Shown in pieces: positions 6,045-7,782 of a stretch of DNA of 64,000 nucleotides. A model generated the notes under the pieces. The model was not told where the DNA came from and made no database searches. It was given only the letters and a program-made list of their open reading frames with translations. A program made the translations under genes and the position numbers. This DNA is from Chthonomonas calidirosea T49. GTDB lineage: Bacteria; Armatimonadota; Chthonomonadetes; Chthonomonadales; Chthonomonadaceae. Location: NCBI RefSeq assembly GCF_000427095.1, contig NC_021487.1, positions 994,266-1,058,265 of the forward strand, in the 5' to 3' direction. Within the stretch, counting starts at the first letter, position 1, and the number at the start of each line of letters is the position of its first letter.

Positions 6045-7043
6045 ATGGCAGCACCGCAACGTCTTCAAGGCTCTTGGATGGACTTCCAGCATCAGAATCC
6101 TCACGATGGGGACTACTGGAACGAAACGACCCGTCGTTTCACCGATTCGCAGTGGCGAGGAAAAATTGCAGAAATGGCACAACTCCATTTGGAGTACGTG
6201 GTACTGATGTCCTCCGCCTTAGACAACTGCGCCTTCTATCCATCTCGTCTGATGCCACGACACGATCTGGCCTGCGCTGACCCCATTGCAGCGGTCTTAG
6301 AGGCGGCAGAGGAACACGGGCTCAAAGTTTTTGTTAGCGCCGGCTTCTATGGACATACGACGGAGGAGACCAGCGATGCCCCCGACTATCTCGCCTGGCA
6401 CCAAGCTTTGGCACAAGAGCTTATAGAGCGTTACGGCGCCTTTAAAGCGTTCTATGGATGGTATGTACCCAACGAGGCCGAGATACGCGGCCATTTCAGC
6501 GAGAACATGATGGGCTTCCTACCGGTCTTTGCACACTATCTTCGCTCCCTCTCCTCACACCATCGCATTCTTATCGCTCCCTACGGCACTCGGCAGGTGC
6601 AGGAGGATGAGACGTTTCTCAAGCAACTTTTAACCCTCGGCCAGGCCGGAGTGGATTTTATCGCTTATCAAGATGAGGTAGGCGTGCGAAAAACCAAAGT
6701 GGAAGAGCTAGACGCCATCTACGCACGCCTGCGTCGTCTGCACCAGCAGGCCGCCCATAGAGGCCCTACCCCAGAGCTCTGGGCCGATGTGGAACTGTTC
6801 GAGTTTGAAGGGGCCACCTATGCAAGCGCCCTCATTCCCGCCGACTTCCACCGAATCCTACGACAACTCACAGCCATCGCTCCTCACGTTGAAACCATCC
6901 TCTGCTACCAGACACATGGGCTTCTCAACCCACCCAATAGCCCTCAGCATTGTGGTCACCCCAACTCCGTCCACCTCTGGCAGGCCTATCAGGCCTATTT
7001 AGCGCAAACCTTTCCCTCGCTCGTCGCCCTAAACGATCTATGA
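6045..7043 (+). CDS. DUF4434-type, TIM-barrel glycosidase-like protein
   Basis: The 332 aa product resembles the DUF4434 family (putative glycosidase-like barrels). The N terminus has the typical FQHQNPHDGDYWNE pattern, followed by LEYVVLMSSA, a GLKVFVSAGFYG strand, AFYGWYVPNEAEI (candidate catalytic acid region), ILIAPYGTRQ and VDFIAYQDEVGVRK. It has no signal peptide, so it is probably cytosolic. The start at 6045 has AGGAAAGG about 14 nt upstream, rather far; ATG 6078, just before the conserved FQHQ, is an alternative. Its stop overlaps the next start (ATGA, 7040-7043). The substrate is unknown. Confidence 0.75.
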   Translation: MAAPQRLQGSWMDFQHQNPHDGDYWNETTRRFTDSQWRGKIAEMAQLHLEYVVLMSSALDNCAFYPSRLMPRHDLACADPIAAVLEAAEEHGLKVFVSAGFYGHTTEETSDAPDYLAWHQALAQELIERYGAFKAFYGWYVPNEAEIRGHFSENMMGFLPVFAHYLRSLSSHHRILIAPYGTRQVQEDETFLKQLLTLGQAGVDFIAYQDEVGVRKTKVEELDAIYARLRRLHQQAAHRGPTPELWADVELFEFEGATYASALIPADFHRILRQLTAIAPHVETILCYQTHGLLNPPNSPQHCGHPNSVHLWQAYQAYLAQTFPSLVALNDL

Positions 7044-7782
7044 TGGCATCCAATCTCGAATCGCAGGGATCTCCTAAAGAAGTCTCCCTTTTGGTCTGCG
7101 CTGCAACCCCCCAAGAGCTCGCGGCTTTCTGGTCTGACGATGAGGTCGCCCCGATCTCTCAACCAACGGCCTGGGGCTACCAGGGAACCGTTGCGTGGGT
7201 CTGCACGGGTGTAGGCATTCCCTCCATCTTCGCCGCCCTCTATTCCCTACTCGATTCGCTGCAACCGTCTCTCCTGTTGCACATCGGGATCGCGGGAGCC
7301 TATCCCCATGCTGGTCTTCAGATCGGCGATATCGTGCTTGCTGAATCGGAAACCTATGGTGACATCGGCTTCGAGTTGCCCCACCCCCCTTTTTTCGCCC
7401 AATTCGCGAAGCGCCTTTCAGCCATTCCCTCTACTCAACCCCTCTGTCCCTCGCCCTGCCCGACGAGTGGGTCGCCGCTTCATGGGATATGAACTTCCAT
7501 GTAAAGCGAGGGCGAGGGTGCACTGTCAATCAGTGTACCGGCACGCTAGAAACAGCCCAGCTGCGCCGCTCTCTTTTTCAGGCGGACTTTGAAAGTATGG
7601 AGGGGGCGGCAGTGGCGCAGATCGGCCACCAAAAGGATATCCCTGTGTGCGAGATACGCGCTATCAGCAATATCGCAAGCACACGAGATATGCGCCCGGA
7701 AAACATTCGCCTTGCATTGGCACATCTACGCCACTATCTTCAGGCTTGCCGAATGCAAAAACAAGTTGACCGTCTCTCTTAA
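7040..7782 (+). pseudogene. mqnB: Futalosine hydrolase MqnB in two frames (slippery run, split gene or frameshift)
   Basis: MqnB cleaves futalosine in the futalosine route to menaquinone. The N-terminal part (7040-7492) shows VSLLVCAATPQEL, HIGIAGAYP and IGDIVLAESETYGDIGF. The C-terminal part (7489-7782, -1 frame) shows TVNQCTGT, the active-site FESMEGAAVAQIG and EIRAISNIASTRD. Together they make one normal-length enzyme. The frames can be joined only after a TGA near 7360; within that stretch lies C6T6 at 7384-7395, containing the heptamer C_CCT_TTT (7387-7393) in the correct 0-frame phase. A -1 slip gives HPPFFRPIREAPF and reaches the C-terminal frame without a stop. Alternatives are a lost base, a sequencing error, or two polypeptides coupled by ATGA at 7489. 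ATGATG at 7040 overlaps the previous stop. Confidence 0.75.
7384..7395 (+). other. C6T6 homopolymer with -1 slippery heptamer in mqnB
   Basis: Six C then six T. In the upstream mqnB frame the codons are CAC CCC CCT TTT TTC, so C_CCT_TTT at 7387-7393 has the X_XXY_YYZ layout of classical -1 frameshift sites. I saw no strong downstream stem or upstream Shine-Dalgarno-like stimulator. A homopolymer of this kind is equally a hot spot for indels and base-calling errors. Confidence 0.5.

What the first reader, a model, noticed from the sequence alone, without database searches (positions are those of the whole stretch)
7040..7782. mqnB is split by -1 at a C6T6 slippery run
Seen: the two halves of a futalosine hydrolase lie in adjacent frames. 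The 0-frame codons at the C6T6 run form C_CCT_TTT (7387-7393), a correctly phased -1 heptamer. After a -1 slip the reading (FFRPIREAPF... to the conserved TVNQCTGT) is stop-free. Known: such heptamers drive programmed frameshifts in dnaX and IS3-type genes. Inference: programmed recoding in a menaquinone-pathway gene, a recent one-base loss, or base-calling error. A fourth option is a natural two-chain enzyme, because ATG 7489 overlaps the first stop.
Basis: partly seen in the sequence, partly recalled or inferred. Interest (0 to 1): 0.6.

Follow-up and report, generated by a model that had tools for sequence, protein, structure and literature searches.

The report
Sequencing error splitting an ordinary gene
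A vitamin K2-pathway gene looks cut in two because the published genome, read with a method that miscounts repeated letters, almost certainly lacks one letter in a C6T6 stretch; the gene itself is ordinary.

Summary
The two halves of one futalosine hydrolase (mqnB) lie in adjacent frames and meet exactly at the C6T6 run 7384-7395. Read together they pass the curated MqnB cut-off (127.1 against 124.7 bits). All 22 phylum relatives checked are intact and lack the run; the rest of the Mqn pathway is present. The genome is 3,437,861 bp, exactly the published length of Chthonomonas calidirosea T49, sequenced by 454 Titanium plus Sanger at 20x, a homopolymer-prone method. In a 400-kb control sample of the same assembly three more genes break in the same -1 sense at homopolymers: the only murD, an essential gene (A6), a GAF-histidine kinase (T6) and a dihydroorotate dehydrogenase-like gene (C5). 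A second 400-kb sample added no confirmed case. The slippery heptamer is correctly phased, but phased heptamers are not enriched in this genome's unbroken genes. There is no Shine-Dalgarno stimulator, no significant downstream structure, and no relative shares the site. Best explanation: a one-base undercall in the assembly. A real recent deletion, perhaps leaky through slippage, is the main rival; programmed recoding and a two-chain enzyme are unlikely. Reads or Illumina-sequenced sister strains would settle it.

The parts
7040..7492 (+). N-terminal half of mqnB (futalosine hydrolase), 0 frame, ending at an out-of-frame TGA
   Evidence: TIGR03664 profile 1-101, 51 bits; translation; ATG 7040 overlaps the stop of the preceding DUF4434 gene
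7384..7395 (+). C6T6 run at which the reading frame breaks; one base short relative to relatives. Contains or overlaps phased heptamers C_CCT_TTT (7387-7393) and T_TTT_TTC (7390-7396)
   Evidence: sequence; switch point mapped by tblastn with relatives; only C6T6 in the genome
7390..7782 (+). C-terminal half of mqnB in the -1 frame, homologous from the run onwards, with the TVNQCTGT and ESMEGAAVAQ motifs
   Evidence: TIGR03664 profile 123-225, 71.9 bits; alignment with relatives
7489..7782 (+). Shorter ORF from ATG 7489 (ATGA overlap with the first stop); candidate re-initiation product, judged incidental
   Evidence: ORF list; no Shine-Dalgarno-like core at proper spacing, only GGA 4 nt upstream

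Best explanation
The gene in the living cell is most likely an ordinary, intact mqnB. The assembly is one base short in the C6T6 run because the 454-based sequence undercounted a homopolymer, and this shifts the rest of the gene into the -1 frame. The true run would be one base longer in C or in T (both give the same protein), and the enzyme would hydrolyse futalosine to dehypoxanthinyl futalosine in the Mqn menaquinone pathway. Shown here: the split, its exact position, intact relatives, other homopolymer frame breaks in the assembly including the only murD, and the published sequencing method. Inferred: that this particular break is an undercall and not a real deletion.
For: 1) The genome length of 3,437,861 bp equals the published T49T length; T49T was read by 454 Titanium + Sanger at 20x (PMC4959169 Table 1). 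[quoted passage not shown] 2) The frame switch falls inside the C6T6 run, and the read-through matches relatives column for column (GFELPHPPFFRPIREAPF against GFELPEPPYFQTIADSRF) with no further damage. 3) Other genes in the same assembly break in the same -1 sense at homopolymers: murD at A6 (L049:13497-13502), a GAF-histidine kinase at T6 (L050:14606-14611) and a DHOD-like gene at C5. This murD is the only full homologue in the genome, while four of five family relatives examined hold it intact; murD is essential (established knowledge), so that break is very unlikely to be real. 4) MqnA, MqnD, MqnC and MqnE are present and mqnB is the only futalosine hydrolase; no MTA/SAH nucleosidase that could replace it was identified among the other PF01048 members, so loss of mqnB would leave a gap. 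5) All 22 relatives are intact and none has the run.
Against: No raw reads and no second strain were available. A genuine one-base deletion in T49 looks identical in the assembly, since homopolymers are also mutation hot spots. The control rate is modest: three homology-supported -1 homopolymer breaks in the first 400-kb sample and none confirmed in the second. A GntR-type gene is broken in the + sense without a run, so not every break in the assembly is of this kind.
Confidence: 0.86

Rival explanations
1. A real, recent one-base deletion in the run in strain T49: mqnB is a young pseudogene or a leaky allele, in which low-level ribosomal or polymerase slippage at the run restores some full-length enzyme.
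For: The rest of the gene is undecayed; homopolymers mutate often (established knowledge); phased C_CCT_TTT and T_TTT_TTC would permit some -1 slippage.
Against: The remaining Mqn pathway is complete and no replacement hydrolase was identified, so loss should be costly. The single-copy essential murD shows the same kind of break, which points to the assembly.
Confidence: 0.1
2. Programmed -1 ribosomal frameshifting at C_CCT_TTT / T_TTT_TTC makes the full-length enzyme, with a short N-terminal product as alternative.
For: Correctly phased tandem-slip heptamers and an open -1 frame.
Against: Site and break absent from all relatives; no Shine-Dalgarno-like stimulator upstream (only GAG); folding z-scores from -1.25 to +0.27; in the sampled long ORFs 9 C_CCT_TTT and 9 T_TTT_TTC occur in the slippery phase without a break; no known benefit of a truncated MqnB.
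Confidence: 0.03
3. A natural two-chain enzyme: the second chain is re-initiated at ATG 7489, coupled to the overlapping TGA.
For: ATGA overlap at 7489-7492, the usual geometry of translational coupling.
Against: About 33 residues between the run and ATG 7489 that relatives have would be missing from the second chain and be replaced by unrelated residues on the first; no Shine-Dalgarno core at proper spacing; all relatives are single chains.
Confidence: 0.01

Closest known systems
Homopolymer undercall errors of 454 pyrosequencing (PMC3116506)
   Same: One base short in a homopolymer, otherwise undamaged gene, several genes affected in one 454-based assembly, including an essential one
   Different: Nothing seen; proof from reads is missing
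MqnB, futalosine hydrolase (NCBIfam TIGR03664; PNP/UDP phosphorylase superfamily PF01048)
   Same: Whole profile covered when both frames are read together, above the curated cut-off; family motifs present
   Different: Split over two frames in this assembly
Programmed -1 frameshifting of dnaX and IS3-type genes (established knowledge)
   Same: X_XXY_YYZ heptamer in the correct phase
   Different: No stimulatory Shine-Dalgarno or structure found, no conservation, no functional reason
Slippage rescue at homopolymer tracts in endosymbiont pseudogenes (recalled, not checked here)
   Same: Single-base indel in a homopolymer within an otherwise intact gene
   Different: Described for long poly(A) tracts in AT-rich genomes; here C6T6 at about 54% G+C

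Membership tests
MqnB futalosine hydrolase (TIGR03664) | Full-length profile match above the curated cut-off of 124.7 bits | tested here: met
   Read-through protein 127.1 bits, profile 1-225 of 228; each half alone is below the cut-off
MqnB futalosine hydrolase (TIGR03664) | Genome carries the rest of the futalosine pathway (MqnA, MqnC, MqnD, MqnE) | tested here: met
   Two PF02621 genes, one MqnC over its cut-off, one gene best matched to MqnE at 429.4 against a cut-off of 434.55 bits
MqnB futalosine hydrolase (TIGR03664) | Hydrolysis of futalosine | not testable with these tools
   Needs an enzyme assay
Programmed -1 ribosomal frameshift site | X_XXY_YYZ heptamer in 0-frame phase | tested here: met
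   C_CCT_TTT 7387-7393 and T_TTT_TTC 7390-7396
Programmed -1 ribosomal frameshift site | Stimulatory upstream Shine-Dalgarno or downstream stem-loop/pseudoknot | tested here: not met
   Only GAG 14 nt upstream; folding z from -1.25 to +0.27; pseudoknots not tested
Programmed -1 ribosomal frameshift site | Site and frame arrangement conserved in relatives | tested here: not met
   22 relatives intact, none with the run; no congeneric genome held
Assembly homopolymer error | Error-prone sequencing method used | tested here: met
   T49 by 454 Titanium + Sanger at 20x, identical genome length
Assembly homopolymer error | Similar breaks elsewhere in the assembly, in genes that must be intact | tested here: met
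   Only murD broken at A6; GAF-kinase at T6; DHOD-like at C5
Assembly homopolymer error | Reads or an independent assembly show a different run length | not testable with these tools
   No reads or sister-strain assemblies available

The most novel reading that the evidence does not exclude
The C6T6 sequence is real, and T49 makes full-length MqnB only by -1 slippage at the overlapping C_CCU_UUU / U_UUU_UUC heptamers, so that menaquinone synthesis depends on recoding (possibly in a strain-specific, leaky way).
Probability: 0.04. Interest if true: 0.6.

Novelty: not a real feature. Interest (0 to 1): 0.1.

Why it matters
If it were real recoding it would be, as far as I know, the first in a menaquinone-pathway gene. 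As it stands, the value is a warning: the reference genome of this isolated genus probably carries a modest number of one-base homopolymer errors that split genes, including murD and mqnB, and pathway reconstructions or gene-loss inferences that rely on it can be misled.

Tried and rejected
Programmed frameshift: rejected for lack of conservation, stimulators and enrichment of phased heptamers. Two-chain enzyme: rejected because of the missing segment. Replacement of MqnB by another hydrolase: the other three PF01048 genes score best as two MTA-phosphorylase-like proteins and an HpnG-like protein. Scan of GTDB genome contigs: gave only one relative, intact. Genus search: only the window's own genome is held, so no within-species comparison was possible. 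The T49 genome paper itself is not in the library. No paper in the library holds both 'futalosine hydrolase' and 'frameshift'.

Full report
What is there. The window is G000:C1:994266-1058265 of a single-contig genome of 3,437,861 bases. That is exactly the length published for Chthonomonas calidirosea T49T (PMC4959169, Table 1). The same table gives strain TKA4.10 the same length, but that genome was read by Ion Torrent and assembled on T49 as template, so either identification means a homopolymer-prone platform. At 7384-7395 lies C6T6, the only one in the genome.

The split. The 0-frame ORF (ATG 7040/7043 to TGA 7490-7492) gives profile positions 1-101 of TIGR03664, futalosine hydrolase; the -1 frame from the run to 7782 gives positions 123-225. 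The read-through protein reaches 127.1 bits against a curated cut-off of 124.7, while neither half passes alone. Searching the DNA with 22 intact relatives from the phylum, the first frame aligns up to 7396 and the second from 7384 or 7387 in most of them. The frame switch is thus located within the run. Read through, the protein aligns without a gap at the junction: GFELPHPPFFRPIREAPF against, for example, GFELPEPPYFQTIADSRF. No further stop or frame change was seen.

Relatives. A search of 201 genomes of the phylum gave intact single-frame MqnB in other genera of the same family and elsewhere. At the homologous place their codons carry no C6T6 run; the longest runs nearby are five bases. No other genome of the genus is held, so the test could not be made within the species.

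Need for the enzyme. Both PF02621 genes (MqnA/MqnD type), MqnC and MqnE are present. Among the PF01048 genes, mqnB is the only futalosine hydrolase; the others look like two methylthioadenosine phosphorylases and an HpnG-like protein. That makes a real loss of mqnB costly. It is an inference, since the menaquinone content of this species was not found in the library.

Control: is the assembly free of such breaks elsewhere? A codon-usage scan of the window plus twenty 20-kb stretches, followed by Pfam, found further same-strand breaks supported by homology. murD: N-terminal and middle domains in one frame, C-terminal domain in the -1 frame, junction at A6 (L049:13497-13502). A genome-wide search shows that this is the only full murD in G000 (profile 1-351 and 350-440 in two frames), while four of the five relatives examined carry it whole. 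A GAF-histidine kinase breaks in the -1 sense at T6. A dihydroorotate dehydrogenase-like gene breaks in the -1 sense at a C5 run; another intact DHOD gene exists. A GntR-type regulator breaks in the other sense with no run. A second 400-kb sample gave no confirmed same-family split, though a DNA methylase with a G8 run is a candidate for phase variation. The rate is therefore modest, about three -1 homopolymer breaks in 800 kb outside the window, but real. murD is essential (established knowledge), so its break is very unlikely to reflect the living cell. [quoted passage not shown]).

Is the heptamer special? C_CCT_TTT is in the slippery phase, and so is the overlapping T_TTT_TTC. In 441 long unbroken ORFs (673,506 bases) the slippery-phase counts are 9 of 48 for CCCTTTT and 9 of 26 for TTTTTTC, no enrichment. 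No Shine-Dalgarno-like core stands upstream of the run beyond a GAG, and folds of the region are unremarkable (z -1.17, -1.21, 0.27, -1.25). The murD junction (GAA AAA ACT) is not a tandem-slip heptamer at all, so recoding would not explain the breaks as a group.

Conclusion. The feature is best read as a one-base homopolymer undercall in the deposited sequence of an ordinary mqnB (0.86). A true recent deletion, possibly leaky, is the main rival (0.10). Programmed recoding (0.03) and a two-chain enzyme (0.01) are unlikely. Reads, or the Illumina assemblies of P488 and WRG1.2, would decide.

Noticed in passing
L049:13497-13502 (G000:C1 about 1,133,497-1,133,502): The only murD of the genome is split in the -1 sense at an A6 run: profile 1-351 in one frame, 350-440 in the other. 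Probably another assembly error.
   Followed up: yes
L050:14606-14611: GAF-domain histidine kinase split in the -1 sense at T6 (CCT TTT TTC, the same codons as in mqnB).
   Followed up: partly
L053:11649-12610, minus strand: Dihydroorotate dehydrogenase-like gene split in the -1 sense near a C5 run; another intact DHOD gene exists at C1:3169359.
   Followed up: partly
L050:6025-7222: GntR-type regulator with a sugar-binding domain, broken in the + sense with no long homopolymer at the junction; a real mutation or another kind of error.
   Followed up: no
L085:3-1701, minus strand (G000:C1:20003-21701): N6_N4 DNA methylase whose frame appears to change at a G8 run, followed by a DUF559-like stretch; candidate for phase variation of a restriction-modification gene, or a miscounted run.
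   Followed up: no
window 6045-7043: DUF4434 (glycosidase-like) gene directly upstream, whose stop overlaps the mqnB start (ATGA), with no Shine-Dalgarno-like core before mqnB.
   Followed up: no
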